Shown piece after piece: positions 6,446 through 53,496 of a stretch of 64,000 nt of DNA. The stretch is from positions 26,800 to 90,799 of the forward strand of contig JAFNXM010000013.1 in the NCBI GenBank assembly GCA_017383485.1, written 5' to 3'. Each line of letters starts with the position of its first letter. Position 1 is the first letter of the stretch. The notes beneath the pieces are model-generated. The model was not told where the DNA came from, did not search any database, and saw only the letters and a program-made list of their open reading frames with translations. The position numbers and the translations under genes are program-made. The DNA comes from Bacteroidaceae bacterium. GTDB lineage: Bacteria; Bacteroidota; Bacteroidia; Bacteroidales; Bacteroidaceae.

Positions 6446-6529
6446 AAAAAGTCAAGGCCTTGTGAAAATAAAGTCTTGGCTTTTTTCAACGATCCGTTGC
6501 GAAATTTTTACGAGGTCTTGACTTTTTTC
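6446..6529 (+). repeat. Intergenic inverted-repeat element, copy A
   Basis: Ends AAAAAGTCAAGGCCTTGTGA and its near reverse complement (ending at 6528) form terminal inverted repeats of about 25 bp. The family core is at 6488-6511 and is the most diverged copy (AACGATCCGTTGCGAAAT). It lies between two plus-strand genes. Confidence 0.75.
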
Positions 6530-6548
6530 ACCGGAAAAATCAATAAAA

Positions 6549-6587
6549 ATTAGGCGAAATAGCCCAGTTGTGTCTATTCCGCCTAAT
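6549..6587. repeat. Hairpin with 14-bp arms
   Basis: ATTAGGCGAAATAG and CTATTCCGCCTAAT pair at 13 of 14 positions around an 11-nt loop. No T-run follows. Possibly a structural part of the repeat region. Confidence 0.5.
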
Positions 6588-6651
6588 TTTCTACACAAAT
6601 TTACAACAATTTTTCGCGTGTTCCAAATCCCGATTTTTGCCATTTTGCCCC

Positions 6652-6678
6652 TTTTGTCAAAATTTTTCGCATTTTTTT
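6652..6678 (+). repeat. 25-mer motif copy 2
   Basis: TTGTCAAAATTTTTCGCA followed by a T-run, 120 bp downstream of element A. Confidence 0.55.
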
Positions 6679-6810
6679 GCAGGATTTGATGATTTTCAAA
6701 TAAATGCGTTACTGCTCTGAAAATAAATGATATATATGCTGTTTCGGCCTACTGTTGCATCTGCTGTAAAAGAAAAAGTGAATTTTTTTTCAAAAAAAGT
6801 GGCGAGAAAA

Positions 6811-6842
6811 TTTGGAGGATAAAAAACAAAGTCTTACTTTTG
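6811..6842 (+). promoter_or_regulatory. Promoter for the Fur-family regulator
   Basis: TTTG at 6811-6814, 20-nt spacer, TACTTTTG at 6835-6842. The ATG is at 6882. Confidence 0.6.
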
Positions 6843-6881
6843 CATTGAAATCAAAAATGAAATGATTACAAATTTGAAATT

Positions 6882-7304
6882 ATGCAGAAGGACGCCTACA
6901 CATATTTGACCGAGCACGGCATCAAGCCCTCTCCCCAGCGCATGGCGGTGATGGAATATCTGATAGCCAACCCCGTGCATCCTACAGTCGAGGCGATCCA
7001 TGCAGCTTTGGTGGGACGGATGCCGACCCTGTCGAAAACGACTGTCTACAACACCTTGAAACTCTTCGTGGAAAGTGGAGCAGCACAGGTCCTGACGATC
7101 AATGAAAAGATGACCAATTTTGACGCCGACGTCGAGCCTCACGCACACTTCCTCTGCGCTGAATGTGGCGAGATATACGATATCGCTGAAAACGAGGAGA
7201 TGGTGAAGCAGGCTACTGCACTACCCGAAAACTTTCAACTCGACACGACCTCGGTTTACCTGAGGGGGATCTGTCCAAAGTGTCTACAGAAAAAGAATAA
7301 ATAA
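6882..7304 (+). CDS. Fur-family metalloregulator, PerR-like
   Basis: The 140-residue protein has an N-terminal winged helix (SPQRMAVMEYL, then LSKTTVYNTLKLF) and a C-terminal dimer domain. Structural-zinc cysteines are 92/95 (CAEC) and 131/134 (CPKC). The regulatory-site region FDADVEPHAH supplies Asp81, His87 and His89, which fits peroxide sensing by histidine oxidation as in PerR. The next gene, 66 bp downstream, is a rubrerythrin, a usual PerR target, so a peroxide-stress role is likely. Fur or Zur function is less likely given the neighbour. Confidence 0.85.
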   Translation: MQKDAYTYLTEHGIKPSPQRMAVMEYLIANPVHPTVEAIHAALVGRMPTLSKTTVYNTLKLFVESGAAQVLTINEKMTNFDADVEPHAHFLCAECGEIYDIAENEEMVKQATALPENFQLDTTSVYLRGICPKCLQKKNK

Positions 7305-7370
7305 GTACACAAAAACTAACAATCGAGAATAATAATCAAAAAAACGTATAACATTTAATCTGAAACTATT

Positions 7371-7925
7371 ATGAACAAGAAATTTATCTGCACAGTATGT
7401 GGTTATGTACATGAAGGAACTGAAGCACCTGAAAAGTGCCCACTTTGTAAGGTACCCGCTTCTAAGTTTAAGGAAATGGACGAAACTGCAGGTTTGCAAT
7501 TTGTAGCTGAACATGAATTAGGCGTTGCAAAAGGTTGCGACGATGAAATGATAAAGGACCTGAACAATCACTTTATGGGCGAATGCACCGAAGTAGGTAT
7601 GTATCTCGCTATGAGCCGTCAGGCAGATCGTGAAGGTTATCCCGAAATCGCAGAAGCTTTCAAGCGCTATGCTTGGGAAGAAGCAGAACATGCTTCTAAG
7701 TTTGCTGAACTCCTGGGCGATGTGGTTTGGGATACAAAGACTAACCTCGAAAAGCGTATGAATGCTGAATCTGGCGCTTGCGAAGACAAGTTCCGCATCG
7801 CTAAGCGTGCTAAGGAACTCAACCTCGACGCTATCCACGATACAGTACACGAAATGGCTCGCGACGAAGCTCGTCACGGCAAGGGATTCGAAGGTCTCTT
7901 CCACAGATACTTTGGAAAAAAGTAA
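7371..7925 (+). CDS. Reverse rubrerythrin (N-terminal rubredoxin domain)
   Basis: The 184-residue protein has a rubredoxin-type Fe(SCys)4 site first (Cys7, Cys10, Cys23, Cys26) and then a ferritin-like diiron domain with EEAEH and DEARH motifs. Classical rubrerythrins have the opposite order. Such reverse rubrerythrins reduce hydrogen peroxide, and in some anaerobes oxygen, using NAD(P)H-derived electrons in the cytoplasm. It follows the PerR-like regulator on the same strand, and probable repression by it is inferred. It is followed by a terminator at 7963. Confidence 0.9.
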
Positions 7926-7962
7926 TTCCCGACTCAAAGAATTTAGGTTGATAATTGATGGA

Positions 7963-7993
7963 ATGCCTTCTGGGAGACCAGGGGGCATTTTTG
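7963..7993 (+). terminator. Terminator after rubrerythrin
   Basis: ATGCC-TT-CTGG pairs with CCAG-GG-GGCAT, including G-U pairs, followed by TTTTTG. Confidence 0.65.
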
Positions 7994-8131
7994 TCATATA
8001 TCGGTGGTTCTGATATCTAGGAAAGTGTATCTCAACGATGCCAAGTGTATTTAAACTCTGCAAAAAATGTATCTCAGTGTTGCCCGTTGAAGGAGATGCC
8101 CAGAACAGAAGAATTTGAATGTTGGATTATA

Positions 8132-8173
8132 TAGAATCGCCTTACAATAAAAACTGTGAGGCGATTTCTTTTG
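8132..8173 (+). terminator. Hairpin terminator upstream of purA
   Basis: GAATCGCCTTACA pairs with TGTGAGGCGATTTC and is followed by TTTTG. It lies upstream of the purA promoter, so it does not belong to the purA transcript. Confidence 0.55.
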
Positions 8174-8203
8174 TCGTATGGCCTTTCTTTCAATTCTTTG
8201 TTG

Positions 8204-8211
8204 TATCTTTG
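8204..8211 (+). promoter_or_regulatory. purA promoter -7 box
   Basis: TATCTTTG matches TAnnTTTG. The downstream sequence ACTCGCAGAA resembles the start region of several other promoters in the window. Confidence 0.55.
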
Positions 8212-8286
8212 TACTCGCAGAAAGAATGGACTCGGTAGCGCGAGACAATTTCACTGAAAAGAAAATATATAGATAATCAAAATACA

Positions 8287-9555
8287 ATGGCAACAGGAAA
8301 AGTAGACGCCTTGCTCGGTATCGTATTTGGCGATGAAGGCAAAGGAAAAGTTGTAGATTACTTTACACCACAATATGATGTGGTAGCACGTTTTGCAGGC
8401 GGACCCAATGCAGGTCACACTATTATCTTCGATGGTAAGAAGTTTGTGCTTCGCTCTATCCCCTCGGGTATCTTCGACGAAGGTAAACTCAATATCATCG
8501 GTAACGGCTGTGTGATTGCACCAGACCTCTTTATGCTGGAAGCAAAGGAAGTGGAAAGTGCAGGATACCAATTGACCGATCGCTTGCACATCAGTAGACG
8601 TGCGCATCTGATTCTGCCTACACACCGTGTGCTCGACCGCGCTTACGAAGCGGCTAAGGGTAAGGCTAAGGTCGGTACTACAGGCAAGGGTATTGGTCCT
8701 ACTTACAGCGATAAGGCTGCTCGCATCGGATTGCGCGTGGGTGATGTCTTGAACGACTTTGATGCAAAATATGCAGCACTCAAGGCTCGTCACGAACAAA
8801 TCCTGAAGGATCTTCACTTTACAGACTACGGTATTACTGAAGAAGAAAAGGTGTGGATGGAAGGTGTGGAATACATGAAGAAGTTCCACTTGGTGGACAC
8901 CGAACATGAAATCAACCGTTACCTGAAGGAAGGTAAAAAAGTCTTGGCTGAAGGCGCACAAGGTTCTTTGTTGGACATCGACCACGGTACATATCCTTTC
9001 GTATCTTCTTCGTCAACCACGAGCGGCGGCGTATGTACAGGTTTGGGCGTAGCGCCTAACACAATCGGTCGCATCTTTGGTATCTTCAAGGCCTACAGCA
9101 CACGTGTAGGTTCTGGTCCCTTCCCAGTAGAATTGTTCGACGAGACAGGCGCAGAAATCCGCCGTATTGGTAAGGAATTTGGTGCGGTGACAGGTCGCGA
9201 TCGCCGTTGCGGATGGATTGACTTGGTAGCCTTGAAGTACGCTATTATGATCAATGGCGTGACAGACTTGGTGATGATGAAGAGCGACGTGCTTGATGGC
9301 TTTGACACCATCAAAGTTTGCGTAGCTTACGAAAAAGATGGCGAGACTGTGACAGAAATGCCTTACGACACAGAAGGCTGGAACCCTGTATATGAAGAAT
9401 TGCCAGGCTGGAAGACGCCATTGAGCGACTTGCGTAATGAAAGTGAATTCCCCGCAGCGTTCAAGTCATACATAGATTATTTGGAAAAGGCTCTGGAAAC
9501 TCCAATTTCAATAGTCAGCGTAAGTCCTGATCGTGATGCGACTATCGTTCGCTAA
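8287..9555 (+). CDS. purA: Adenylosuccinate synthase
   Basis: The 422-residue enzyme joins IMP and aspartate with GTP to form adenylosuccinate, the first committed AMP step. It shows the GDEGKGKVVD phosphate loop, the GTTGKGIGPTYSDKA switch region and the EGAQGSLLDIDHGTYPFV substrate segment. The length is normal for the family. It is a single gene with its own promoter and terminator, and its codon use is strongly biased, as expected for a well-expressed housekeeping gene. Confidence 0.97.
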   Translation: MATGKVDALLGIVFGDEGKGKVVDYFTPQYDVVARFAGGPNAGHTIIFDGKKFVLRSIPSGIFDEGKLNIIGNGCVIAPDLFMLEAKEVESAGYQLTDRLHISRRAHLILPTHRVLDRAYEAAKGKAKVGTTGKGIGPTYSDKAARIGLRVGDVLNDFDAKYAALKARHEQILKDLHFTDYGITEEEKVWMEGVEYMKKFHLVDTEHEINRYLKEGKKVLAEGAQGSLLDIDHGTYPFVSSSSTTSGGVCTGLGVAPNTIGRIFGIFKAYSTRVGSGPFPVELFDETGAEIRRIGKEFGAVTGRDRRCGWIDLVALKYAIMINGVTDLVMMKSDVLDGFDTIKVCVAYEKDGETVTEMPYDTEGWNPVYEELPGWKTPLSDLRNESEFPAAFKSYIDYLEKALETPISIVSVSPDRDATIVR

Positions 9556-9576
9556 GATATATTATATATAAAGATA

Positions 9577-9617
9577 AAGAGAGATTATTGCCCGAGGGTG
9601 ATAATCTCTCTGTTTTT
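9577..9617 (+). terminator. purA terminator
   Basis: AGAGAGATTATTGCCC pairs with the following GGGTGATAATCTCTCT and runs into TTTTTT. Confidence 0.75.
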
Positions 9618-9841
9618 TATACAATATGAGGTGGGAACCTTAGTAGAATCCAAAAATAAAATAAAAAATATCAAACGCCTTATTCCTATTGTATTTAATG
9701 GAGGCTTGAGCGTTTTTTTGTTGTGCAAAAACTATATCCTTATCTACGCTAAAGATGAATTGCTGTACAGGCTGGTTGTATCTTTGCATTGCTAAAGTTT
9801 AGCAGTGCTCTTTGACTTTTTGTATATATTTATAATAAGGA

Positions 9842-10528
9842 CTACTCTGATTCAAAAAATCGCCAGATGCCCAGAGTTGGGTAGGGCGCGGTGACGCTGA
9901 TGAGCTGATGAGATACGGGGTGTTCGAACGAGATGTGGCGAGCGTGCAGGCAGATGCTGCCGTCGGGATTGCTGCGAGGAGCGCCATATTTCAAGTCGCC
10001 GTGGATGGGCGCAAAGGTGTGGGACAGCTGGCAGCGTATTTGATGGTGTCGGCCTGTGTGCAGATTGACTTCGACCAGGGTATAGCGCTCGGACGAGGCG
10101 ATGTGTCGGCAGTCGAGCAGGGCTTGCTTGGCCCCCTGTGTGCCTGCACTGCGGACGTACGATTTGTTCTGCTTTTCGTTGCGCCATATCCAATGTTCCA
10201 ACGCCGTCTTGTCCACAGGTACGGGCCTGCGCAGTGCTGCTGTCGGGAGCAGGGCATGGTAGGTCTTGTGCACGGTGCCTTTCTTGAACATTTCGCACAG
10301 ACGCGACAGCGCTTTGCTGGTTTTCGCAAAGACCACGATGCCGCTGACGGGGCGGTCCAGTCGGTGCGCTACGCCCAGGAATACATTACCCGGCTTAGCA
10401 TATTTTCCCTTCAGATAGGCTTTGATGATCTCGGGCAGTGGGGTGTCGCCCGTTTTGTCGCCTTGCACGATTTCGCCCGCGGCTTTGTTGACGATGATGA
10501 TGTGATTGTCTTCGTAGAGTACGGTCAT
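9842..10528 (-). CDS. RluA-family pseudouridine synthase
   Basis: The 228-residue protein contains the catalytic-Asp motif HRLDRPVSG, the ARG/QIR-type segment HTGRHHQIRCQLSH, and a C-terminal substrate-handling region. It isomerises uridine to pseudouridine in rRNA or tRNA. There is no S4 domain, so it is shorter than RluC or RluD and the target cannot be assigned. It lies downstream of fabG on the same strand, but a terminator at 10675 and a 216-bp gap separate them. Confidence 0.88.
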   Translation of the reverse strand: MTVLYEDNHIIIVNKAAGEIVQGDKTGDTPLPEIIKAYLKGKYAKPGNVFLGVAHRLDRPVSGIVVFAKTSKALSRLCEMFKKGTVHKTYHALLPTAALRRPVPVDKTALEHWIWRNEKQNKSYVRSAGTQGAKQALLDCRHIASSERYTLVEVNLHTGRHHQIRCQLSHTFAPIHGDLKYGAPRSNPDGSICLHARHISFEHPVSHQLISVTAPYPTLGIWRFFESE

Positions 10529-10674
10529 TGCGTATTATAGGTTATGGGGCGTTGGTTATGAGTTGTGGGGGCATGAGTTATGGGTTATGAGCTGGGTGCC
10601 AAGATCAGGCATCTTAACCTCTTTACTTCAGAACTTCAGTATATCTTAACTCCAGAACTTCGTAGTCTTAAAAA

Positions 10675-10716
10675 CAAAAAAGCGAGCAGGCCAGTCTCAT
10701 CGTCCAGCTGCTCGCC
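10675..10716 (-). terminator. fabG terminator
   Basis: On the minus strand GCGAGCAG pairs with CTGCTCGC and is followed by TTTTTTG. Confidence 0.7.
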
Positions 10717-10744
10717 TCTGTATTTGATTTTGTCTGAGAAAAAA

Positions 10745-11491
10745 TTACATATTCATACCGCCATCTACCTGGAGTACTTGGCCAGTGACATAAGATGCCA
10801 GGTCAGAAGCCAGGAAGGTAGCTACATTAGCGATATCTTCAGGTTGTCCACCGCGGCGAAGTGGAATCTTTTTCGCCCAGTCAGCACGTACATCGTCAGG
10901 CAAAGCTGCGGTCATAGCTGTCTCGATGAAGCCTGGAGCGATAGCATTGGCACGGATGCCGCGGCTACCCATTTCTTGAGCTACACTCTTGGCCAGAGCG
11001 ATCATACCAGCCTTAGACGCTGCATAGTTGCTCTGTCCCGCATTGCCGTGTACACCCACAACGCTGGCCATATTGATGATAGAGCCGCTGCGTTGGCGCA
11101 TCATGATAGGAGTACATGCGTGGATGAAATTGAAAGCAGATTTCAGATTGACATTGATCACAGCGTCCCATTGTGCTTCGGTCATACGCATCATCAGGCC
11201 ATCCTTAGTGATGCCAGCATTGTTTACCAAAATATCAATAGTGCCAAAATCTTTGTGAACTTGACCTACAACTTCTGCAGTTTGTGCAAAGTCTGCAGCA
11301 TTGCTTGCGTATGCCATGCATTTCACGCCTTTTGCTTCGATCTCAGCCTTTGTAGCTTCGCCGTTTTCGTCGATGACAAGGTCAGTAAAGGCGATGTTTG
11401 CGCCTTCTTCTGCAAATTTCAATGCGATAGCCTTTCCGATACCGCGTGCAGCACCTGTGACGAGTGCTGTCTTACCTGTTAAAAGTCCCAT
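10745..11491 (-). CDS. fabG: 3-oxoacyl-ACP reductase
   Basis: The 248-residue short-chain dehydrogenase has the NADPH glycine motif TGAARGIGKA, NNAGIT, and a catalytic Ser-Tyr-Lys set (MASVVG, then SNYAASKAG). It reduces 3-oxoacyl-ACP in fatty acid elongation. The TetR regulator lies 95 bp upstream on the same strand, a common Bacteroidales pair, so joint transcription and regulation by it are plausible. Confidence 0.93.
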   Translation of the reverse strand: MGLLTGKTALVTGAARGIGKAIALKFAEEGANIAFTDLVIDENGEATKAEIEAKGVKCMAYASNAADFAQTAEVVGQVHKDFGTIDILVNNAGITKDGLMMRMTEAQWDAVINVNLKSAFNFIHACTPIMMRQRSGSIINMASVVGVHGNAGQSNYAASKAGMIALAKSVAQEMGSRGIRANAIAPGFIETAMTAALPDDVRADWAKKIPLRRGGQPEDIANVATFLASDLASYVTGQVLQVDGGMNM

Positions 11492-11585
11492 AGTTGTGAT
11501 TTTTTGTTATGGTAATTAAATTTGTTTCTTTGTAAATGATAGGCAGCGCCAAATGTGGGTTTATTCAGCAAAAATCAACTTGGTT

Positions 11586-12170
11586 TTATGCCGCACCAAG
11601 CATTCTGCGTACAATTTCTTTTACGATAGGATAAGTCTCCTCCTCAGTCAGCCCTCCGCCCAATCTGTTGAAGATATAGGGTACTTCCAGTCCCTTGATA
11701 GTATAGTGGATGATTTCTGCCATTAGGCTGATGTGGTCAATATTTAATGCGCCCTTTTCTACGCCCTCTGTCAGAACTTGGTTGAGTAGGCGAATTTCTT
11801 CAGCATCAAATGCTTTTCTGACGCCCTCAACCTTCCAAATGTTGCGGAAGAACTCTGCACGCAGCGAGCCATTCCTAGACACCGTCTCGCGTATCATGTG
11901 CAGATGGGTAAAGACCAACTGGAACACCTTTTCCAAGGGATCTACCAGCATCGCGGCTACTTCGTCCATCTTTTCAGACATCAGTTTCAACTCGTGCTCG
12001 ATGACTGCATAGTAGACATCTTCTTTGCTGCGGAAGTAGGTGTATAGTGTGCGTCTGCCCTTGCCTGATGCCAGGGCGATGTCGTTCATCGTGGTTGCTT
12101 CGATACCATTTTTTGCAAAGAGTTCGCGAGCTACGTCGACGAGCAAAGCGCGGGTTTTAGGAGTAGACAT
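11586..12170 (-). CDS. TetR/AcrR-family transcriptional repressor
   Basis: The 194-residue protein has an N-terminal HTH (FAKNGIEATTMNDIALASGKGRR, then LYTYF) followed by an all-helical ligand domain. It sits upstream of fabG, suggesting control of fatty acid synthesis; the ligand is unknown. Its promoter overlaps a perfect 9-bp inverted repeat (12225-12257), a good candidate for its own operator. Confidence 0.88.
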   Translation of the reverse strand: MSTPKTRALLVDVARELFAKNGIEATTMNDIALASGKGRRTLYTYFRSKEDVYYAVIEHELKLMSEKMDEVAAMLVDPLEKVFQLVFTHLHMIRETVSRNGSLRAEFFRNIWKVEGVRKAFDAEEIRLLNQVLTEGVEKGALNIDHISLMAEIIHYTIKGLEVPYIFNRLGGGLTEEETYPIVKEIVRRMLGAA

Positions 12171-12224
12171 GTCTGTAGTCTATAATTAAAGTTGTGGTGT
12201 GTTTGATTTGATGTATAAAAAATA

Positions 12225-12257
12225 CACTTGCACAAATTTTGTATTTTCGTGCAAGTG
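12225..12257 (-). promoter_or_regulatory. Candidate TetR operator
   Basis: CACTTGCAC at 12225-12233 and GTGCAAGTG at 12249-12257 form a perfect inverted repeat with a 15-nt spacer, placed at the expected transcription start just downstream of the -7 box. Confidence 0.6.
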
Positions 12258-12288
12258 CAAAGGTATATCTTTTATTTATAAGTGCAAA
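12258..12288 (-). promoter_or_regulatory. Promoter of the tetR-fabG unit
   Basis: On the minus strand TTTG (12285-12288), a 19-nt spacer and TACCTTTG (12258-12265) form a near-ideal Bacteroidetes promoter. Confidence 0.65.
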
Positions 12289-12312
12289 GTGTTTTGTCGT
12301 GGAAATCTTCCA

Positions 12313-14010: not shown

Positions 14011-14037
14011 ATCTGAATATTAATACTTATTTTGACG

Positions 14038-14045
14038 CAAATTTA
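14038..14045 (-). promoter_or_regulatory. SulP gene -7 box
   Basis: The minus strand reads TAAATTTG. No clear -33 box is seen. Confidence 0.45.
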
Positions 14046-14220
14046 GATATTTTTATGGAGAAATTGGACACACTTATCTCTACTTCGTAAAATTGTGTAG
14101 AAAAGCAGTCCAAATTTATAAATATTGTTTCCCGGAGTTGGCAAAATGCATCTTATTGCCCTTCTTGTAGTGATCAGGCGAAGGAATACTACACATATTT
14201 TATATCTTCAAAATATCAAG

Positions 14221-14306
14221 AAAAAAAGTCAAGACCTTGTAAAAATAAAGTCTAATGTTTTTTAAACGAGACGTCGCGAAATTTTTACAAGGTCTTGACT
14301 TTTTTT
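14221..14306 (+). repeat. Intergenic inverted-repeat element, copy B
   Basis: The left end AAAAGTCAAGACCTTGTAAA and the right end ending at 14306 are perfect inverted repeats of at least 25 bp. The core AACGAGACGTCGCGAAAT starts at 14265. This is the best-preserved copy, and it lies between divergent promoters, so it is not simply a terminator. Confidence 0.8.
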
Positions 14307-14430
14307 CGTTCAAAAACGATGCGCATGATGACGCTATGTTGCTATTAAGTTTTTTTATCTCATCAGGTGTTGCTTGTCTCCTTTTTTGTCGTATTTTTGC
14401 TCGAAGGTGAAAATTCTTTCGCTCGTGATG

Positions 14431-14481
14431 AAAAATATTCAAGAAACTTGATATGTTTTCGCTCGCTTATTCGTATCTTTG
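14431..14481 (+). promoter_or_regulatory. GH85 promoter, shared block with guaD
   Basis: The -7 box TATCTTTG lies at 14474-14481, preceded by AAAAATATTC, CTTGATAT and TTTCGCTCGCTTA as in the guaD promoter. Confidence 0.6.
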
Positions 14482-14593
14482 TCATGTCATCTTGGTGGAA
14501 TCTCTCTTGGTGACAAAATGGTTCAAAAATCAACCTAAAAAAATATTGATTTATTAAATCCTTAATTATTCATTTTAACAAATCCTAAATCCT

Positions 14594-18540: not shown

Positions 18541-18645
18541 GTTCAAAAAAAAATCAAGGCCTCGTGAAAATTTCGCGACGCCTCGTTGAAAAAAGGTTAA
18601 GGCTTTTTTGAAAAAGGTTAGGGCTTGTTTGAAAAGGTCAAAGAG
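18541..18645 (-). repeat. Intergenic repeat element, copy C, with tandem sub-repeats
   Basis: The family core (reverse of GACGCCTCGTT, with TTTCGCG before it) lies at 18564-18587 on the minus strand. The other terminal repeat is degenerate. From 18588 a unit of about 21 bp (GAAAAAAGGTTAAGGCTTTT, then GAAAAAGGTTAGGGCTTGTT, then GAAAAGGTC) is repeated. Confidence 0.65.
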
Positions 18646-26800: not shown

Positions 26801-26825
26801 AAAAATGCGAAAAATTTTGACAAAC
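26801..26825 (-). repeat. 25-mer motif copy 3
   Basis: Reverse orientation: TGCGAAAAATTTTGACAAA preceded by an A-run. Confidence 0.55.
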
Positions 26826-26876
26826 GGGGTTGATGAAATAGAGAGAAGCATTGGTTTGTATTAGGCCTTTTGAAAA

Positions 26877-26960
26877 GAAAGTAAGACTTTGTTGAAAAAA
26901 AGTCTTGGAAAATTTTAACGAGACGGCGCAAAGTTTTTACAAACCCTTGACTTTTTTTTG
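26877..26960 (+). repeat. Intergenic inverted-repeat element, copy D
   Basis: The core AACGAGACGGCGCAAAGT starts at 26917. The left end (AAAGTAAGACTTTGTTGAAA) and right end (ACCCTTGACTTTTTTT) are diverged inverted repeats. Confidence 0.7.
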
Positions 26961-27131: not shown

Positions 27132-27158
27132 GAAAAATGCGAATTTTTTTGACAAAAA
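27132..27158 (-). repeat. 25-mer motif copy 4
   Basis: Reverse orientation: TGCGAATTTTTTTGACAAAA preceded by an A-run. Confidence 0.55.
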
Positions 27159-37716: not shown

Positions 37717-37757
37717 AATAAAAAGACGTGGGAGAAACTTTCGTCGCTTATCCCACT
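37717..37757 (-). terminator. Terminator of the candidate RNA
   Basis: On the minus strand GTGGGA pairs with TCCCAC, with further pairing of AAGCGACGAAAG in the loop, then GTCTTTTTATTT. Confidence 0.7.
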
Positions 37758-38104
37758 ATATCAGGCCTTCGCATTGCCTATGCACAGAGATAAGCAACTC
37801 AGCCAGCCCACGCCGTTGGGTATTATAATGATAGCATGCAACAATGGTGAACCTTGCGGTTCCCATTGTCGGCATACGGGTATAATACACCCAGCATGGA
37901 CGCTTCGTTGCGGAATCTTCTTGTGCATTGTCAAAGTTGCGAAGTTTGATGTAGTAGAAGATTACGTTCTGAAAACGTCCTTTCAATATTCTGAGTCCTT
38001 CTTTGTATATAAAGAGCTTTACAACTATTTATATATAGCAGTGAACCGAATATTATCCATCGATGTATAGATTCCTTCTCCCAAGCACCCAAGGGAGACT
38101 ATGT
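37719..38104 (-). ncRNA. Candidate structured non-coding RNA, about 385 nt
   Basis: A strong minus-strand promoter (38111-38141) and a terminator (37717-37757) frame a region rich in hairpins: a long stem at 37841-37869 (ACAATGG with CATTGT and GAACC with GGTTC around TTGC), 37878-37892 (GGGTATAATACACCC), 37964-37978 (ACGTTCTGAAAACGT), and GGGAGA/TCTCCC pairing near 38077-38098. The short frames over it look spurious. It lacks the tRNA-like ends of tmRNA and RNase P core motifs that I know. A 6S-type or Bacteroidales-specific RNA is possible but not shown. Confidence 0.55.
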
Positions 38105-38141: not shown

Positions 38142-38198
38142 AAAAAACAAAAAAAAGTTTTTTTTGAAAATAAGTATTATTAGATACACTAAACTATA

Positions 38199-38221
38199 GC
38201 CAAAATATTTCGCATTTTTCG
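38199..38221 (+). repeat. 25-mer motif copy 5 (partial)
   Basis: GCCAAAATATTTCGCATTTT; the first bases differ from the other copies. Confidence 0.45.
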
Positions 38222-38393
38222 AGGCCAAATTTCGCTTAAAATCAATCGTGCACACTTTGGGCCGGAAATACGGCCTCTACGCGAGGTTAAATATCAGCTT
38301 TTTTGACGTGTTTTTTGAAAAAGCCTAAGGGAAATTGTGCTTTGGGCTCAAAAAACAAGGTAGGGATAGCCGTAACCGCAAGTTTGAAAATAG

Positions 38394-38478
38394 AAAAAAA
38401 GTAAGACTTTGTGAAAATTTCGCGACGCCTAGTTAAAATTATCCTAGACCTTTTTTCAACAAAGCCTTACCTTTTTTT
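38394..38478 (-). repeat. Intergenic inverted-repeat element, copy E
   Basis: The core lies at 38411-38434 on the minus strand (GTGAAAATTTCGCGACGCCT on the plus strand). The ends AAAAAAGTAAGACTTTGT and CAAAGCCTTACCTTTTTTT are inverted repeats. It sits just downstream of the M20 gene. Confidence 0.75.
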
Positions 38479-38527
38479 CAGGATGTCTGATTTTGTACTT
38501 ATACTGCGTTCTATTTCGACAAAGTGG

Positions 38528-38552
38528 TTTGTCAAAATATTTCGCATTTTTT
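38528..38552 (+). repeat. 25-mer motif copy 6
   Basis: TTTGTCAAAATATTTCGCAT followed by a T-run, next to the 3' end of the M20 gene. Confidence 0.55.
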
Positions 38553-41911: not shown

Positions 41912-41954
41912 ATATATTATATATAGTAGGGGGAGATAGGATTGATAATAGATA

Positions 41955-43554: not shown

Positions 43555-43562
43555 TAATTTTG
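43555..43562 (+). promoter_or_regulatory. Promoter -7 box of the barrel-like protein gene
   Basis: TAATTTTG followed by TCGCAGG; a TTTCG box lies 19 nt upstream. Confidence 0.5.
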
Positions 43563-43642
43563 TCGCAGGTCTTTTGGATAACCCACTCGGTGGGAAAATA
43601 TCTGCACCATATTAACTATTAATTGTATCACTGACTACGACC

Positions 43643-44374
43643 ATGAAAATAGCTCCTTTCATACGTCTGCTCCTCCTGTCATTTGCCTTTGTCAGCCTCC
43701 CCGTGTTGGCACAAAGCCAGGGTGAAAGGGTGGATACCCTGGTATCAGCATCGGCAGAAGTGGCGCCCGATACCGAGGCCGAGATATTGATGGACTTGCC
43801 TGTATCTCCTGCACCATACGACCTCTGCTACTCCCCTGTGTCCTTTTATCCCTCGCCCTTTGCCTTTCATCCTTCGCCTTGCGGTTTTAGTCCCTTCTCA
43901 TGGCCTCTGCATCAGGGTTTCAATGCCCAGTTGTCCATGAATGTGACTTCTGCTTTTGGCAAGGGTGCGCCAAGCGGTGTGGGCTTTGGACAAAGCATTG
44001 CGTTGGCATATGCAGCTCCTGTGAGCAAGAAAGTCAACGTTGCAGTCGGCGTCCATGCGCAGAATATGGATTGGGGGGCATATCATCACAACAATGTGGG
44101 CGTGAGTGCTGCGGTCACCTATCGTCCCAACGACAATGTTTATGTCACAGGTTATGTAGTCAAGAACTTTGGCCCTCGTAGAGTACGACCAACATACACC
44201 CCCTGTGCTTCGCTCTATCCCCTGCGCCCTGCAAGTCTCGCATTCGGGCCCCAGAGATTTTTACCCCATCCCTATCTTTATGATGATTTCTCCACGCGCA
44301 TCGGTGCGTCGGCAGATTTCAAGATTGGCGAACATTCCTATATTCATGTCAGTTTCGAGCATTGCCAGTGGTAG
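43643..44374 (+). CDS. Exported outer-membrane barrel-like protein, unknown function
   Basis: The 243-residue product has a signal peptide (LPVLA/QSQ), a proline/phenylalanine-rich stretch (YSPVSFYPSPFAFHPSP), then alternating beta strands (NAQLSMNVTSAFG, SIALAYAAPVSKKVNVAVGVH, VSAAVTYRPNDNVYVTGYVV, TRIGASADFKIG) ending HVSFEHCQW with an aromatic C-terminal residue, as in outer-membrane barrels. No family is recognised. It stands alone before element F. Confidence 0.65.
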   Translation: MKIAPFIRLLLLSFAFVSLPVLAQSQGERVDTLVSASAEVAPDTEAEILMDLPVSPAPYDLCYSPVSFYPSPFAFHPSPCGFSPFSWPLHQGFNAQLSMNVTSAFGKGAPSGVGFGQSIALAYAAPVSKKVNVAVGVHAQNMDWGAYHHNNVGVSAAVTYRPNDNVYVTGYVVKNFGPRRVRPTYTPCASLYPLRPASLAFGPQRFLPHPYLYDDFSTRIGASADFKIGEHSYIHVSFEHCQW

Positions 44375-44464
44375 TATAGTGCTCTCTCCTACATAAAAAA
44401 AACTTTACAGAAGCAGCCTCCTTGGAGTTCAAGAGGGGCTCTTTTTTTATATCCCAAAATGCTT

Positions 44465-44556
44465 CCAAAAAAAGGTCTAACCTTTTTGAAATTTCGCGAC
44501 GCCTCGTTAAAATTATCCTAGGCTTTTTTTTGACGAGGCGTCGCAAAGTTTTTTCG
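44465..44556 (-). repeat. Intergenic inverted-repeat element, copy F (double core)
   Basis: The core lies at 44484-44508 on the minus strand (AAATTTCGCGACGCCTCGTT on plus) and a second, inverted copy at 44532-44554 (GACGAGGCGTCGCAAAGT). This copy therefore folds on its cores rather than only on its ends. Confidence 0.7.
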
Positions 44557-44637
44557 ACACCAATTCGCTCCTTTCCGGTTTCAGCGAATGAGGGAAAAAG
44601 TTTGTGTGTAAATGGTGATAATGTTGTGGAAAAATTG

Positions 44638-44645
44638 TAACTTTG
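44638..44645 (+). promoter_or_regulatory. GH2 gene -7 box
   Basis: TAACTTTG followed by CAAGG. The ATG is 112 nt downstream. Confidence 0.5.
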
Positions 44646-44750
44646 CAAGGGTGGAGTGGATTGCAGATTTCCGAGGGTTTTCTGAGACCTCGAACAAGCC
44701 ATCCACCATCGCTTTTAGGGATAAAGAAATAATATTAACCTAAACCATAA

Positions 44751-48773
<4,023 letters not shown>

Positions 48774-48798
48774 TATCGCACACATGTATATAATAAAA

Positions 48799-48846
48799 AG
48801 AGAGGATGCGTATCTGCATAGAGCACGTGTCCTCTCCTTTTTTTGC
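48799..48846 (+). terminator. GH2 terminator
   Basis: AGAGAGGATGCG pairs imperfectly with CGTGTCCTCTCC and runs into TTTTTTT. Confidence 0.7.
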
Positions 48847-48889
48847 TTTTATAGTCAATTGCTGTTGTTGGCGGTCTATGTTTTTTTGA

Positions 48890-51022
48890 TTACAACCTAT
48901 TCAAATGTTCAGCGGCAGCACCTTTGCCTTTGTAATTACTGCGTACTGCATTGAATCTGTATCTTACGCTCAAGTGCACGCAACGTGTGTCGCCCATACC
49001 GCTTTGTTCGAACACTGCCTGAGGTAGAAACAGGCGCGGCGCGTTCTTGCCGATGTTGTGCAATAAGTCTTCACCCGAGAGTGTGAAGGACAGTGCACCT
49101 TTGAGCATGGTCTTTTGCAGCGACACGTTCAGATAGAAGACATCAGCCCTGGTCAAGCGTGCATTTTGAGTATCGCCCGGCGAAGTATATTGTAAGTTCG
49201 TGTTAATTGTAAAGTCTTTTGGCAAGGTAAAGGTATTGATCCATTTGCCGACAAATATAGGTTTGTTGAAGCGCATCTGCTGTCCCTGCACATCCATCTC
49301 GAGCCATTGTTTTTGCACGGCGGCAGTGAATTGCGGTCTCCACCATTTTACCTTTGGCGCGGCGGTAATCATTGCCGTCATGCTGGGGATGGAGTGGTTG
49401 GTCTGATAGATATGAATTGCCGAAGGATTGTTTTTTAACGCCTCGCCCCATGTGATAATTTGGTCCTTGGCATAGTTGAAAGAGACGACACCTTGTAGAA
49501 ATTTCCACACACCCATCAGCGTCACGTCGTGCGTAATGACAGGTTTGAGCAGAGGATTTCCACTTTGCATCAAATAGCGGTTGCCATAGGTCAAGTTGCT
49601 GGACAATTCGCCGTAGGTTGGTCTGCGCGTCTTGGTATTATAGGAAAGCATCCACTGAGTTTGTTTCCATTTCGTAGAGAGGGATACGTTGGGGAAGATT
49701 CGGTGGTAAATGCGGCTCTGCTCTGGGCGATAAATACCAGCAGAGAAATAATCGAAATCTACGTATTCATAGCGTAAGCCGGCAGAAAGTTGTCCCCACT
49801 TGAAGGGTCGTGCATATTCTGCAAAGGCGGCTGCATTTTGCTCCTTGAGTTGTGAGTAAGAGGTCACGACGCCATATTGCTCGGTGGGAACTATATTATC
49901 GTCATGGCGGTCTGTGAAAGTATATTGAGCACCTACGCAGAATCTCCCCTGCCATAGTGGGAAAGCATATTGACCCTTGGCTGCGAAGAGTTGATTGCTC
50001 ACGGGATTCACAGATTCCACGATGCGGTCATCGTTGTTCTCGCTTTCCTCTACGGTGATTTGTTGCTTTTCATGCTTATTGGTATAAAAGTCGGCGTCGA
50101 AGGAAAGTTCGCCCTTGCCTATTTGTCCGACGTAGTAGGCGTTGAGTTGGTGCAACGGGTCGTGCTTTCCTTTTATGTCAAGGCGGCTTTCCAAATGGTC
50201 CACATATTGTCCGTTTGCCCAAACGTCTGCGCTCAATGTGCCGCAGCCTCTGTCGTCGAAGTCGTTGCTGAGGTCATAGCGCACGCCGATGCTGTGGCGC
50301 GGAGTAATGTCGTAATTGAATCCCAACTTGCCCCCGAGGTGCCATTTCTCACCTGTGCTCGTTTGCTCAATACGCTGTGTCCACAGGGTGTCGGCATTGA
50401 CTTCCTGGAAGAGTTCTGTATCACCATACCCCTTGCCTTGATAATAATTGATGCCGGCGAAGATGTCCAGAGCGTTGCGTCGGTAGTTCAAGTCCAGCGA
50501 AGTGTTGCCATAGGTGTGTCGTCCTTGCTTCAATTGCCCCAATGCGTCGAGACTGATCCCCTCACCTTGTCGTTTGATCGTGCGGATGCGCACCACGGCA
50601 TTGGTCGTTGCATCATATCGTGCACCGGGATTGCGCACCACCTCGACGGCTCGGATTTCGCTGGGGCGGAGCAGTGAAAGTTCGGCGGCGTCTCGCACGC
50701 GTCGACCATTGATATAGTACACAGGTGCCCCCTTGCCGATCACTTCGATACCATCCTTTGTGCGTCCCAGGCCTGGGATTTGCTCCAGCATCTCTTCGGC
50801 CGTATTCATTTTCTCCAGGTATGTGCCGCTCACCGTAGTTACCAGTGCATCGCCCTCGATACGTGCTATGGCGCGCTGGGCGGAAACGACAGCTTCGCCC
50901 AGGTTTTGCGTCATCGTATCTACGCGCAGACTATCTCCTGTGTCGGTGGCTGTGGGTATAGCGGCGGCTGTGCCGCAGGTCATCATTGCCCCGGCAATTG
51001 CCAAAAGTAAATAAGATTTCAT
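48890..51022 (-). CDS. TonB-dependent receptor-like outer-membrane barrel protein
   Basis: The 710-residue product has a signal peptide, a plug domain (EEMLEQIPGLGRTKDGIEVIG region, YINGRRVRD, RPSEIRAVEVVRNPGARYDA) and a long C-terminal barrel ending in VHLSVRYRFN. It belongs to the outer-membrane beta-barrel family (OMP_b-brl_3 type) and lacks the usual N-terminal carboxypeptidase-like domain. It is the last gene of the ABC-GntR operon, 6 bp after gntR, so it is probably controlled by that regulator. The substrate is unknown; a lipid, peptide or antibiotic-linked role is possible. Confidence 0.87.
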   Translation of the reverse strand: MKSYLLLAIAGAMMTCGTAAAIPTATDTGDSLRVDTMTQNLGEAVVSAQRAIARIEGDALVTTVSGTYLEKMNTAEEMLEQIPGLGRTKDGIEVIGKGAPVYYINGRRVRDAAELSLLRPSEIRAVEVVRNPGARYDATTNAVVRIRTIKRQGEGISLDALGQLKQGRHTYGNTSLDLNYRRNALDIFAGINYYQGKGYGDTELFQEVNADTLWTQRIEQTSTGEKWHLGGKLGFNYDITPRHSIGVRYDLSNDFDDRGCGTLSADVWANGQYVDHLESRLDIKGKHDPLHQLNAYYVGQIGKGELSFDADFYTNKHEKQQITVEESENNDDRIVESVNPVSNQLFAAKGQYAFPLWQGRFCVGAQYTFTDRHDDNIVPTEQYGVVTSYSQLKEQNAAAFAEYARPFKWGQLSAGLRYEYVDFDYFSAGIYRPEQSRIYHRIFPNVSLSTKWKQTQWMLSYNTKTRRPTYGELSSNLTYGNRYLMQSGNPLLKPVITHDVTLMGVWKFLQGVVSFNYAKDQIITWGEALKNNPSAIHIYQTNHSIPSMTAMITAAPKVKWWRPQFTAAVQKQWLEMDVQGQQMRFNKPIFVGKWINTFTLPKDFTINTNLQYTSPGDTQNARLTRADVFYLNVSLQKTMLKGALSFTLSGEDLLHNIGKNAPRLFLPQAVFEQSGMGDTRCVHLSVRYRFNAVRSNYKGKGAAAEHLNRL

Positions 51023-51028
51023 GGTGAA

Positions 51029-51406
51029 TTATTTTACGGAATCTGCGTCCTTTTCTTTTTGATAAGCCTCTTCGAGCATCTCCAGAGTTACACCCAGTTG
51101 CTTCATGCGTTTGAACAAGTCGGGCAGAAATTCGTGCATGAACTCCTGGCGCCTTTGCTGCTTGATAATATCGCAAGCATCGGGTGAAACAAAGTAGCCC
51201 AGACCGCGACGATTGTAGATGACGCCTTGCAGTGCCAAGGTTTCGTAGGCTTTGACCGCCGTATTGACATTCACCCCCAGCAGGGCGGCATATTCGCGCA
51301 CGCCGGGCACTTTGCCGTCGGTGGGATATACGCCTTGCAGGATATCGTCTGCCAAACGCTCGGCCATCTGTATGTAGATGGGGTGTGAAGTCTTAAATTC
51401 TGTCAT
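51029..51406 (-). CDS. GntR-family regulator, YtrA type
   Basis: The 125-residue protein has an N-terminal winged HTH (IYIQMAERLADDILQG, KVPGVREYAALLGVNVNTAVKAYETL) and only a short helical C-terminal dimerisation segment, as in the YtrA subfamily that controls ABC transporter operons. It overlaps the permease gene by 14 bp. Three GGTGTA/TACACC half-sites at the operon promoter (53158-53193) match the half-site style known for YtrA-type regulators. Confidence 0.9.
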   Translation of the reverse strand: MTEFKTSHPIYIQMAERLADDILQGVYPTDGKVPGVREYAALLGVNVNTAVKAYETLALQGVIYNRRGLGYFVSPDACDIIKQQRRQEFMHEFLPDLFKRMKQLGVTLEMLEEAYQKEKDADSVK

Positions 51407-52196
51407 ACCATGTTTGTTTAGAGATGACCTGGATACGGTTGTAAAGACGGCGGGTCAGGCAGAACTGGACCACACTTAATACGAGCAGTATGCAGGCTGC
51501 GACGATACGCATCACATCAAAAACATTGTCATCAACGGCACTCTTGCCAGGAATATCAAAATTTTCCAGGAAAAGTACCAATAGGATAAAACCACCCATC
51601 AGACACAGCTTAGTTTTCAACAAAGCACGGCGACGGAATAGCGCACTGCCCATGGCATAGAACGTCGCAATCCAAGTCATAAACGAGCAGAATAAGAAAT
51701 GGTCCAAGGTTTCGCCTTCCCAATAAAAGGTCGTTTTGAGCAGCATGTCTGGTATCAGCTTGTGGCAGATTAGTGGTAGCGTGTTTTCAAAAAGCAATGG
51801 AGAAAGTATCCAGCGTGCCACGTCTGCCAAAACTATAGCAATCACAAATACGATAGGGAAACCTACACAGCAGAGCAGGAAACGGGCTGCAAACTTCTCG
51901 CCTTTTGTGGCAGGCAGCATGAGTTGGTGCACACGCTTCTGCTTGGTGGAGAAATTGGCAAAGAGTTCGGATATGAATACCAGGGTCGCGCATACTATAA
52001 ATACTGGCATTGAATTATATACGGCTACGTAAAATCTTTCGCTGCCATCATGTAATAGATATTTGGGGTGGACTAAGTATATCAACATCAGCGTACCCAG
52101 AAAAAGTCCGACAAAGAGGCTGATGTATCTCTTGCGATTCATGCTCAAATCCTGCAGTAGCAAGTATTTGATGCGGGTCAGTGAATTTGAGTTCAT
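51393..52196 (-). CDS. ABC transporter permease-like membrane protein
   Basis: The 267-residue product has about six hydrophobic segments (YISLFVGLFLGTLMLIYLV; VFIVCATLVFISELFANF; VGFPIVFVIAIVLADVA; others) and no periplasmic binding domain. It lies between the ABC ATPase and the GntR regulator and is probably the membrane half of an export-type ABC transporter. The transported substrate is unknown. The start is preceded by CCCTATATATG. Confidence 0.82.
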   Translation of the reverse strand: MNSNSLTRIKYLLLQDLSMNRKRYISLFVGLFLGTLMLIYLVHPKYLLHDGSERFYVAVYNSMPVFIVCATLVFISELFANFSTKQKRVHQLMLPATKGEKFAARFLLCCVGFPIVFVIAIVLADVARWILSPLLFENTLPLICHKLIPDMLLKTTFYWEGETLDHFLFCSFMTWIATFYAMGSALFRRRALLKTKLCLMGGFILLVLFLENFDIPGKSAVDDNVFDVMRIVAACILLVLSVVQFCLTRRLYNRIQVISKQTWYDRI

Positions 52197-52273
52197 ATAT
52201 AGGGATATTAATTCTGTTAATCTGTTGTTTGTTTTTCTCTATTCAATATAAATATATAGGAGTGATTTTCTTC

Positions 52274-53113
52274 CTATGCCTTTAAATAGCGTTCCACCAA
52301 ATCGGGTTGTACGGACAAGGCATTGAAGAAGAGTTCTAGATTGAGCACGGTTTCCTCGCCGCCAGGGTTGGGATAGACTACAGACGTACCTGCCAGGTTG
52401 GGCTCTTGGTAAATCACCGTGCTCGGCACATCACTTGTCGGCACCACGGCGAAGCTCAGACGCTCGGTGATGTCCGCAGTGGCCCCCTCGTAGTGCAGTT
52501 GGCTGTTCTTGAGCAGAATGACGCGATCCAGCAGATACTCCACATCGCGCACTTGGTGAGTGGAAATGATGATGATGCGCTCGTCGTTCATGCACGAGGT
52601 GACGACACGGCGAAATACGGCCTTGGATGGAATGTCTAGCCCGTTGGTGGGTTCGTCGAGCAGGAGCAATCGTGTACCCGTAGCCAGGGCAAAGCAGAGC
52701 ATCGCCTTTTTCTTTTGTCCCATCGACAGACTCTTCAGGTCGACGTCCATGGGCAATTCAAATTCCGCCATACAGCGACCCAACTGCTCGTGATCAAATC
52801 GCGGATAGAGCGGAGCATGCAGGCGCACGTATTTTTCAAAAGAAATCTTTGGCGCATCAAACTCCTCGGGCAGGATATAGATGTCCTGCAGGGTGCCCAG
52901 TTGGCGCTTAGTCACATTGATGTCGTTCATCATCACCTTGCCCCCATCGGGGAAGAGTAAGCCCGAGAGTAAATAGAACAGGGTCGACTTGCCCGTACCA
53001 TTCTTGCCCAGAAGTCCGTAGATAGCGCCTGGATGTAGCGTGAGCGACAAATCCTCGATCACGTTGGGCTTCTTTTTGCCATAAGCAAATGTCAGGTTTT
53101 CAATCTTTATCAT
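52274..53113 (-). CDS. ABC transporter ATP-binding protein
   Basis: The 279-residue ATPase has Walker A (GKNGTGKST), a signature region reading LSMGQKKKA rather than LSGGQ, Walker B (LLLLDEPTNGLD), and switch His (STHQVRD). It couples ATP hydrolysis to the permease encoded next. The C-terminal 70 residues are variable. It is the first gene of the four-gene operon and its promoter carries the candidate GntR operator. Confidence 0.92.
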   Translation of the reverse strand: MIKIENLTFAYGKKKPNVIEDLSLTLHPGAIYGLLGKNGTGKSTLFYLLSGLLFPDGGKVMMNDINVTKRQLGTLQDIYILPEEFDAPKISFEKYVRLHAPLYPRFDHEQLGRCMAEFELPMDVDLKSLSMGQKKKAMLCFALATGTRLLLLDEPTNGLDIPSKAVFRRVVTSCMNDERIIIISTHQVRDVEYLLDRVILLKNSQLHYEGATADITERLSFAVVPTSDVPSTVIYQEPNLAGTSVVYPNPGGEETVLNLELFFNALSVQPDLVERYLKA

Positions 53114-53157
53114 AATATATCTGTTAATTGGTTTGATACGTTATTATACTCGTTTTC

Positions 53158-53193
53158 TACACCCAAATAGGTGTAATAGTGAAATAGTACACC
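53158..53193 (-). promoter_or_regulatory. Candidate GntR/YtrA operator with three half-sites
   Basis: TACACC (53158-53163), GGTGTA (53170-53175) and TACACC (53188-53193). The last two form an inverted repeat with a 12-nt spacer immediately downstream of the -7 box. Confidence 0.65.
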
Positions 53194-53194
53194 G

Positions 53195-53202
53195 CAAAAG
53201 TA
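53195..53202 (-). promoter_or_regulatory. ABC-GntR-receptor operon -7 box
   Basis: The minus strand reads TACTTTTG, followed directly by the operator. Confidence 0.55.
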
Positions 53203-53336
53203 TGACAATATTAAATATTCTCCAAATTTTTCAAGCATTTTTTTCATCTTTTTCTGAAAAAACATTTCTTTGCTCAGTTTTTTGCCCAGAGTTGAGTGAC
53301 AAAAACGACACCAAGGTAAGGGCACTTTTCGCCACC

Positions 53337-53360
53337 CCAAAAGTGCGAAAAATTTTGACA
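53337..53360 (-). repeat. 25-mer motif copy 7
   Basis: Reverse orientation: GTGCGAAAAATTTTGACA, upstream of element G. Confidence 0.5.
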
Positions 53361-53412
53361 TTTCAAATTTTCAAACTAGAACGGCGGGATGCGTTTGAAC
53401 CTTATGGAAAAT

Positions 53413-53496
53413 GAAAAAGTCAAGGGTTTTTTGAAAAAAAGTCTAAGGAAATTTCAACGAGCCGTCGCGAAATTTTCACAAACCCTTGACTTTTTT
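53413..53496 (+). repeat. Intergenic inverted-repeat element, copy G
   Basis: The core AACGAGCCGTCGCGAAAT starts at 53456. The ends AAAAAGTCAAGGGTTTTTTG and CAAACCCTTGACTTTTTT are inverted repeats of about 20 bp. Confidence 0.78.

What the first reader, a model, noticed from the sequence alone, without database searches (positions are those of the whole stretch)
6446..53496. Family of about 85-bp inverted-repeat elements in seven intergenic regions
Copies at 6446, 14221, 18541, 26877, 38394, 44465 and 53413 share a core near AACGAGRCGTCGCGAAAT and terminal inverted repeats of the AAAAAGTCAAG type. They occur in both orientations, always between genes. They lie in convergent, divergent and co-directional gaps, so they are not simply terminators. 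Copy B has perfect 25-bp ends. Copy F has the core itself duplicated as an inverted repeat. Seven copies in 64 kb suggest hundreds per genome. They could be a MITE-like mobile repeat, a REP-like element with an unseen partner, or a structured RNA or nucleoid-binding site.
Basis: seen in the sequence. Interest (0 to 1): 0.78.

Follow-up and report, generated by a model that had tools for sequence, protein, structure and literature searches.

The report
Evenly spaced 21-bp module arrays
Two closely related Bacteroidales bacteria carry, about every 7,000 bases between their genes, a short array built from interchangeable 21-base units; the arrays are spaced far more evenly than chance and stay at the same sites while their sequence changes, which suggests a chromosome-wide DNA-level function or an unusual mobile repeat that keeps its distance from its own copies.

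Summary
The seven elements are real: 8 core matches against 0.07 expected. They are not a fixed 85-bp unit but arrays, commonly of four modules, in a 21-bp register (identity peaks at lags 21, 42, 63), built from a small set of A-tract/GC-centre/T-tract words. I found 144 in 1.15 Mb of the host genome and 82 in 0.68 Mb of a sister genome ('Prevotellaceae bacterium cow7.9' MAG), 2 in one further same-genus genome, and none by BLAST in the other 34. Two properties were not foreseen. (1) Even spacing: medians 6.4-7.1 kb, CV 0.41 against 0.86-0.90 for random intergenic placement (minimum 0.63). (2) Presence is conserved at orthologous gaps (25 both, 116 neither, 1 discordant) although words and spacer change. 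Terminator, one-strand RNA, REP/RAYT and curved-DNA readings are not supported; target-site duplications were not detected. Best reading: regularly spaced DNA-level anchor or insulator arrays. Main rival: a miniature transposon limited by target immunity, since a 4-4.5 kb exclusion zone alone reproduces the spacing. The binding protein or mobiliser is unknown.

The parts
6445..6531 (+). Element A, four 21-bp modules, core AACGATCCGTTGCGAAATTTT; lies between two M motifs 291 bp apart
14220..14308 (+). Element B, four modules, 27-nt perfect arms; divergent gap
18545..18631 (-). Element C, four modules; convergent gap
26872..26959 (+). Element D, four modules, inside a 332-bp M-M frame; convergent gap
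38392..38479 (-). Element E, four modules, inside a 332-bp M-M frame; tandem gap
44467..44557 (-). Element F, core module present twice in opposite orientation; tandem gap
53413..53499 (+). Element G, four modules, one imperfect M motif on one side; divergent gap
6362..6385 (+). M motif (3 mismatches to TTTGTCAAAATTTTTCGCATTTTT)
6653..6676 (+). M motif (exact)
26801..26824 (-). M motif (exact)
27133..27156 (-). M motif (3 mismatches)
38196..38219 (+). M motif (4 mismatches)
   Evidence: C12:64995
38528..38551 (+). M motif (1 mismatch)
53339..53362 (-). M motif (3 mismatches)

Best explanation
The elements are a lineage-specific set of DNA-level sites: arrays, commonly of four modules, in which 21-bp words (two helical turns; A-tract, variable GC-containing centre of about 9 bp, T-tract) stand in register, one array per occupied intergenic gap about every 7 kb. 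SHOWN: modularity, 21-bp register, copy number, even spacing in two genomes, conservation of presence at orthologous gaps while the words and the spacer change, mutual complementarity of outer modules without a one-strand RNA signature, enrichment of rearrangement endpoints in array-bearing gaps. INFERRED: a sequence-tolerant DNA-binding protein occupies successive modules on one face of the helix, and the bound arrays act as regularly spaced anchors or topological insulators dividing the chromosome into segments of about five genes. Selection would keep an array at each segment boundary, not a particular sequence, and whole modules would be gained, lost and exchanged.
For: Autocorrelation at lags 21/42/63 of 0.54/0.50/0.46 against about 0.27 shuffled; arrays without the core keep lag 21 at 0.52 (43 of 226 elements). 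Spacing CV 0.41 (96 spacings) against null means 0.86-0.90, minimum 0.63 over four variants of 1000 draws; 1 spacing under 2.5 kb against 21-24 expected. Repeated on 14 contigs (130 spacings, CV 0.41) and in the sister genome (61 spacings, CV 0.43, none under 2.5 kb). Presence at syntenic gaps 25 both / 116 neither / 1 discordant. Different words, same kind of array at the same gap (ten sites printed). No orientation preference relative to genes in tandem gaps (24 same, 29 opposite, 6 undecided); 59 of 215 tandem, 22 of 52 divergent and 18 of 48 convergent gaps of >=100 bp occupied. Rearrangement endpoints next to arrays in 29 of 50 cases against 24.6% of gap edges. Mean of 4.9 genes between arrays.
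Against: No binding protein identified. Exclusion of 4-4.5 kb with near-saturation reproduces the spacing without any function. Element sequence is no better conserved than the rest of its gap (74% against 73%; element higher in 14 of 25, p 0.46). The G000 core 20-mer is kept within one mismatch on the same strand at 0 of 14 diverged sites, and both genomes have a core within one mismatch of the consensus at only 2 of those 14 (13 of all 25). A test of whether orthologous arrays keep profile score better than random mutation is mixed: 5 of 14 clearly better, 4 clearly worse. Several G001 arrays at shared sites score only 20-23 bits, near the 19-bit threshold, and one (g1C98:25424) looks degenerate. 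Predicted curvature is not raised. 34 of 36 same-genus genomes, many of them incomplete, show no BLAST match, so any function is lineage-specific.
Confidence: 0.45

Rival explanations
1. A miniature, non-autonomous mobile element whose ends are arrays of about 21-bp transposase-binding sites (as in the ends of Tn7 or Mu; recalled, not tested) and which obeys target immunity: it does not insert within about 4 kb of another copy and has nearly saturated the genome. The even spacing is then a fossil of insertion, not a function.
For: Random placement with a 4-4.5 kb exclusion reproduces the CV (0.45 and 0.40 against 0.405) and nearly the quantiles. High copy number in only two of 37 same-genus genomes, host included, looks like a burst. 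Some copies are recent duplicates (L003/L005/L006 about 94% over 360 bp). One gap holds a longer composite in one species only (C27:83513, gap 676 against 381 bp).
Against: No target-site duplication beyond shuffles in 56 full-length elements. No clear empty site: 1 weak discordance in 142 syntenic gaps. Inert copies should decay in gaps whose spacer has been replaced, yet arrays with other words stand there. Transposase searches gave no candidate: the IstB-profile hits look to me like cellular AAA+ proteins (inferred from partial matches in ORFs of about 450 aa, not tested), and the Mu_transpos_C search found nothing but its control was silent too, so it is uninformative.
Confidence: 0.3
2. 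Bidirectional transcription terminators or insulators acting as RNA: A-tract, complementary arms, T-tract on both strands.
For: Folding z -2.95 and -3.42 on the two strands (129 elements) against -0.8 for other intergenic DNA (100 controls). Arms covary, 11 of 20 pairs changed on both sides, 44 cells against 24.5 shuffled. In tandem gaps the array lies nearer the upstream stop (median 93 bp) than the next start (220 bp).
Against: Divergent gaps, where nothing needs terminating, are occupied at least as often (22 of 52) as convergent ones (18 of 48). G-T and A-C mismatches are equal (39, 38). Loops between the outer arms are about 40 nt. A terminator role does not explain spacing of about 7 kb, exclusion, or the 21-bp register.
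Confidence: 0.15
3. REP/BIME-type repeats dispersed by a RAYT (Y1 tyrosine transposase).
For: Intergenic, palindromic, mosaic, high copy number.
Against: One Y1 transposase in the host, none found in the sister genome (74% complete), and one to three in three genomes without any element.
Confidence: 0.03

Closest known systems
BrickBuilt MITE of Porphyromonas gingivalis (PMC4596501; abstract, section list and passages seen)
   Same: Bacteroidales, always intergenic, tandem short units without spacers (23 nt there), inverted-repeat ends, narrow host range.
   Different: 19 copies in strain ATCC 33277; 23-nt direct repeats flanked by leader and tail; target-site duplications in three of the four copies with both ends, and one filled/empty pair between strains; terminal repeats similar to those of other elements of that species. 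Here 144 copies in 1.15 Mb, 21-bp words of several kinds, even spacing, no duplications or clear empty sites detected.
REP/BIME elements (PMC2817692, PMC3733652: search listing and start of abstract only)
   Same: Many short palindromic mosaic repeats between genes.
   Different: Units of 20-40 bp, many linked to RAYTs; no RAYT link here and a 21-bp register.
Iteron arrays of plasmid origins (recalled, no call)
   Same: In-register repeats of about two helical turns bound by a protein.
   Different: Iterons are a cluster per replicon; these are well over a hundred dispersed arrays.
Ends of Tn7/Mu with 22-bp transposase sites and target immunity (recalled, no call)
   Same: Array of about four ~22-bp sites in ~90 bp; immunity would space copies.
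   Different: No transposase, duplications or insertion polymorphism found here.

Membership tests
MITE | Terminal inverted repeats | tested here: inconclusive
   Outer modules complementary and covarying in 36 chosen copies, but the ends are interchangeable modules, not a fixed TIR
MITE | Target-site duplication | tested here: not met
   56 full-length elements; best score lies within the range of 20 shuffles. Old copies could have lost it
MITE | Empty sites or insertion polymorphism | tested here: not met
   142 syntenic gaps: 25 both, 116 neither, 1 weak discordance; one larger composite differs between the species
MITE | Autonomous relative with the same ends | tested here: inconclusive
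   IstB-profile and Mu_C searches gave no candidate; the Mu_C control was silent; host genome 64% complete; other transposase families not searched
REP/BIME | Associated RAYT (Y1_Tnp) | tested here: not met
   1 in G000, 0 in G001 and G003, 1-3 in the element-free G004, G009, G015
Structured RNA of a known family | Rfam match | tested here: not met
   Only a tRNA at gathering score in the window
Intrinsic terminator | Located downstream of genes only | tested here: not met
   22 of 52 divergent gaps occupied
Intrinsically curved DNA | Predicted bend above composition | tested here: not met
   67.5 deg against 71.3 for own shuffles and 64.7 for other intergenic DNA; wedge parameters recalled
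BrickBuilt | 23-nt tandem unit with leader and tail | tested here: not met
   Unit is 21 bp; no search with the BrickBuilt sequence was made
Chromosome-organising protein-binding array | Protein bound in vivo | not testable with these tools
   Needs ChIP or pull-down

The most novel reading that the evidence does not exclude
A bacterial chromosome is divided into segments of about 7 kb by maintained, regularly spaced boundary arrays whose presence and 21-bp grammar, but not sequence, are under selection: a chromosome-scale spacing system not described before, with sites about five genes apart acting as anchors for an unknown protein.
Probability: 0.33. Interest if true: 0.92.

Novelty: new variant of a known kind. 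Interest (0 to 1): 0.74.

Why it matters
As far as I recall, interspersed repeats in bacteria are described as scattered among intergenic gaps without regular spacing. A family that keeps even spacing in two genomes, and keeps its sites while exchanging its words, makes either of two questions testable: whether bacteria mark chromosome segments at fixed intervals, or whether target immunity can pack a miniature transposon to saturation. Either answer would, to my knowledge, be new for the Bacteroidales.

Tried and rejected
Terminators: disfavoured because divergent gaps are occupied as often as convergent ones. One-strand RNA: disfavoured on equal G-T and A-C mismatches; the model R1 built from 36 copies kept only 3 base pairs, so it is in effect a sequence profile. 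REP/RAYT: disfavoured. Curved DNA: no excess. Target-site duplications: none beyond shuffles.

I suspected that assemblies break at elements through population rearrangement. Rejected: 0 of 24 G000 contig ends and 4 of 21 G001 contig starts lie within 400 bp of an element. I suspected that rearrangements cross over inside elements: endpoints are enriched in array-bearing gaps (29 of 50 endpoints of the 25 breakpoints of <=900 bp, out of 31; both ends at 10, one end at 9, neither at 6), but three junctions inspected are not simple recombinants of the two parental elements, so the mechanism is open. The two endpoints of one breakpoint are not independent, and the null rate came from 790 gap edges on six contigs while breakpoints came from 14, so the binomial p of 5e-7 is too small.

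Whole-module length changes between orthologous gaps: 9 of 11 differences of 5-59 bp lie within 3 of 21 or 42 (differences listed; my count), but 13 of 31 do so in gaps without elements, partly from start-codon miscalls and other tandem repeats (nine such gaps printed); gap lengths alone are therefore weak evidence. Two pairs at about 1% substitution differ by exactly one 21-bp module (C36:167596, C4:84263).

Does a complete same-genus genome (G004) have its own analogue? In 280 kb there are no elements, and its intergenic repeats are neither 21-bp modular nor regularly placed by eye. No viral contig holds the exact core pattern. Six paper searches listed nothing that I recognised as regularly spaced module arrays; I saw listings and starts of abstracts only, and that library holds open-licence papers only.
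Full report
WHAT IS THERE. The window is G000:C12:26800-90799 of a 1.68-Mb, 39-contig, 64%-complete genome. The nearest named record is the MAG 'Prevotellaceae bacterium isolate cow7.9' (31 stretches with the exact core pattern). I did not establish the species or genus name of the host.

ANATOMY. I chose 36 four-module copies by eye from the 90 windows listed (three genomes); as fixed-length windows anchored on the core they align without gaps over 94 columns, partly by construction. The independent test is autocorrelation within 150 detected elements (those spanning over 70 bp): identity peaks at lags 21, 42 and 63 (0.54, 0.50, 0.46 against about 0.27 in shuffles; lag 22 is also raised, 0.42). 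Elements are therefore arrays of 21-bp modules, commonly four (spans of 87-88 bp most frequent), up to 172 bp, including a run of four near-identical core modules (C27:53006). Words share the plan A-tract, variable centre, T-tract; examples are AACGAGGCGTCGCGAAATTTT, AAAAACATTAGACCTTTTTTT, AAAAAGGTTAGACCTTTTTTT and CACAAGGTCTTGACTTTTTTT. The core is one frequent word, not an obligatory one: in the two genomes 43 of 226 elements lack it (>=5 mismatches), and these keep the 21-bp period (0.52).

COMPLEMENTARITY. In the 36 copies the outer modules pair and covary: 81.4% standard pairs (77.8% in shuffles), 11 of 20 pairs changed on both sides, 44 such cells against 24.5 in shuffles, and far fewer (5-16) when the partner is slid. 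Mismatches of the G-T kind (39) and A-C kind (38) are equally common, and both strands fold better than shuffles (z -2.95 and -3.42; other intergenic DNA -0.8; 129 elements, 100 controls). This is symmetry of DNA, or of both strands, not the mark of one RNA. Palindrome perfection by template switching could also produce it (established knowledge, not tested).

COPY NUMBER AND RANGE. 144 elements in 1,150,664 bp of the host and 82 in 682,893 bp of G001 (threshold 19 bits). BLAST with copy B against 36 same-genus and 24 same-order genomes matched G001, G003 (one place) and, by 23 bp only, one same-order genome. No viral contig holds the core pattern.

EVEN SPACING. On six contigs (783,252 bp) 102 elements have 96 spacings: mean 7.13 kb, median 6.35 kb, CV 0.41. 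Placing the same number at random among intergenic gaps gives CV means of 0.86-0.90 in four variants and never below 0.63 in 1000 draws each; spacings under 2.5 kb number 1 against 21-24 expected; spacings over 12 kb number 7 against about 17. With the three intragenic weak hits removed (99 elements, 93 spacings) CV is 0.405 and the minimum 2.7 kb. On 14 contigs CV is 0.41 (130 spacings, median 6.86 kb, one under 2.5 kb). In G001 CV is 0.43 (61 spacings, median 7.14 kb, minimum 3.7 kb). A model that only forbids neighbours within 4-4.5 kb reproduces this (mean CV 0.45 and 0.40, 400 runs each). The data therefore show an exclusion zone and near-saturation; they do not say whether selection or insertion made it.

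SITES KEPT, WORDS EXCHANGED. Of 142 intergenic gaps (>=50 bp) with the same neighbour genes in both genomes, 25 carry an element in both, 116 in neither, and 1 is discordant (a 22.5-bit hit in G001). An earlier, looser flank-based count on fewer contigs found an element between the two flanks at 23 of 24 and 20 of 20 two-sided sites, but 4 and 2 of these span more than 2 kb in the other genome, so it is inflated. Element sequence is 74% identical, the rest of the gap 73%, element-free gaps 76%, neighbouring genes 93%. At 13 of 25 shared sites both genomes have a core within one mismatch of the consensus. At the 14 sites whose spacer has largely changed this holds for 2, and the host's own core 20-mer is kept within one mismatch at none (same strand). 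Yet at the ten such or similar sites that I printed both genomes show a 21-bp array, often with different words; one G001 copy (g1C98:25424) looks degenerate and several score only 20-23 bits. Of 43 spacer segments at 14 sites, 35 match nothing else in the held contigs, so copying from another locus is not evident for most. A profile-score test against random mutation is mixed: 5 of 14 pairs clearly better, 4 clearly worse, combined p 0.002. Presence is thus better conserved than sequence; selection on presence is the simplest reading, but it is inferred.

CONTEXT. Arrays occupy 59 of 215 tandem, 22 of 52 divergent and 18 of 48 convergent gaps of >=100 bp, with no orientation preference in tandem gaps (24 same, 29 opposite, 6 undecided). 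My gene calls come from a simple hexamer caller; start sites are approximate. Rearrangement endpoints between G000 and G001 fall next to arrays in 29 of 50 cases against 24.6% of gap edges.

FRAMED SUBCLASS. Some arrays sit between two same-orientation copies of a 24-bp motif M (TTTGTCAAAATTTTTCGCATTTTT). Over the held contigs of both genomes 71 M sites (<=4 mismatches) form 30 such pairs, with 11 unpaired sites; 27 pairs contain an element; 20 of 30 are 331 or 332 bp apart and five are 353, 374 or 375; in most the array lies about 172 bp from one M and 48 bp from the other. Frames may differ by 25-30% in sequence and yet keep length. Three frames are about 94% alike and so recent copies. Of 61 genomes searched at <=1 mismatch M has 45 sites each in G000 and G001, 2 in G003 and 1 each in G025 and G046. 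In the window D and E are framed, A lies in a 291-bp variant, G has one imperfect M.

MECHANISM. Best reading: protein-binding arrays spaced as anchors or insulators along the chromosome (0.45). The step from array to protein is inferred from the 21-bp register and the tolerance to word change; no protein was found. Main rival: a miniature transposon with target immunity (0.30), which explains spacing by exclusion but predicts insertion polymorphism, duplications and decay that were not seen. Terminator (0.15) and REP/RAYT (0.03) readings fit less.

NOVELTY. Closest in print among what I saw is BrickBuilt of P. gingivalis (PMC4596501; abstract and passages). It shares tandem short units, intergenic position and the order Bacteroidales, but not unit length, copy number or polymorphism. 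I saw no report of even spacing in the listings. I class it as a new variant of interspersed repeats; if the spacing is functional it would be a new kind.

Noticed in passing
window 6362-6385, 6653-6676, 26801-26824, 27133-27156, 38196-38219, 38528-38551, 53339-53362: A second 24-bp motif (TTTGTCAAAATTTTTCGCATTTTT) frames some elements as same-orientation pairs at quantised distances (331/332, 353, 374/375; also 291), 30 pairs in the held contigs of two genomes.
   Followed up: partly
window 37721-37985: An intergenic stretch of about 265 bp recurs in several copies in G001 and G003 and in part in G004 and G002, i.e. across the genus, unlike the arrays; no Pfam family for the ORF over it and no Rfam match over it.
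   Followed up: partly
window 869-2101: A tandem duplication of about 600 bp at 69% identity.
   Followed up: no
G000 C27:31.4k, 39.4k, 46.1k, 83.8k: Four array-bearing gaps on one contig share a second, longer spacer family; at 83.5k the sister genome has a simple array and a gap 295 bp shorter, a possible insertion or replacement polymorphism of a larger composite.
   Followed up: partly
G001 C27:62.7k against G000 C4:44.8k-59.9k: A 15-kb difference: G000 has two arrays inside it, G001 has a 387-bp junction carrying one array.
   Followed up: no
G004 C1:1034286, 1049172, 1156093, 1190493: A different intergenic repeat with GTTAACTTCG/CGAAGTTAAC words in both orientations in the element-free same-genus genome.
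   Followed up: no
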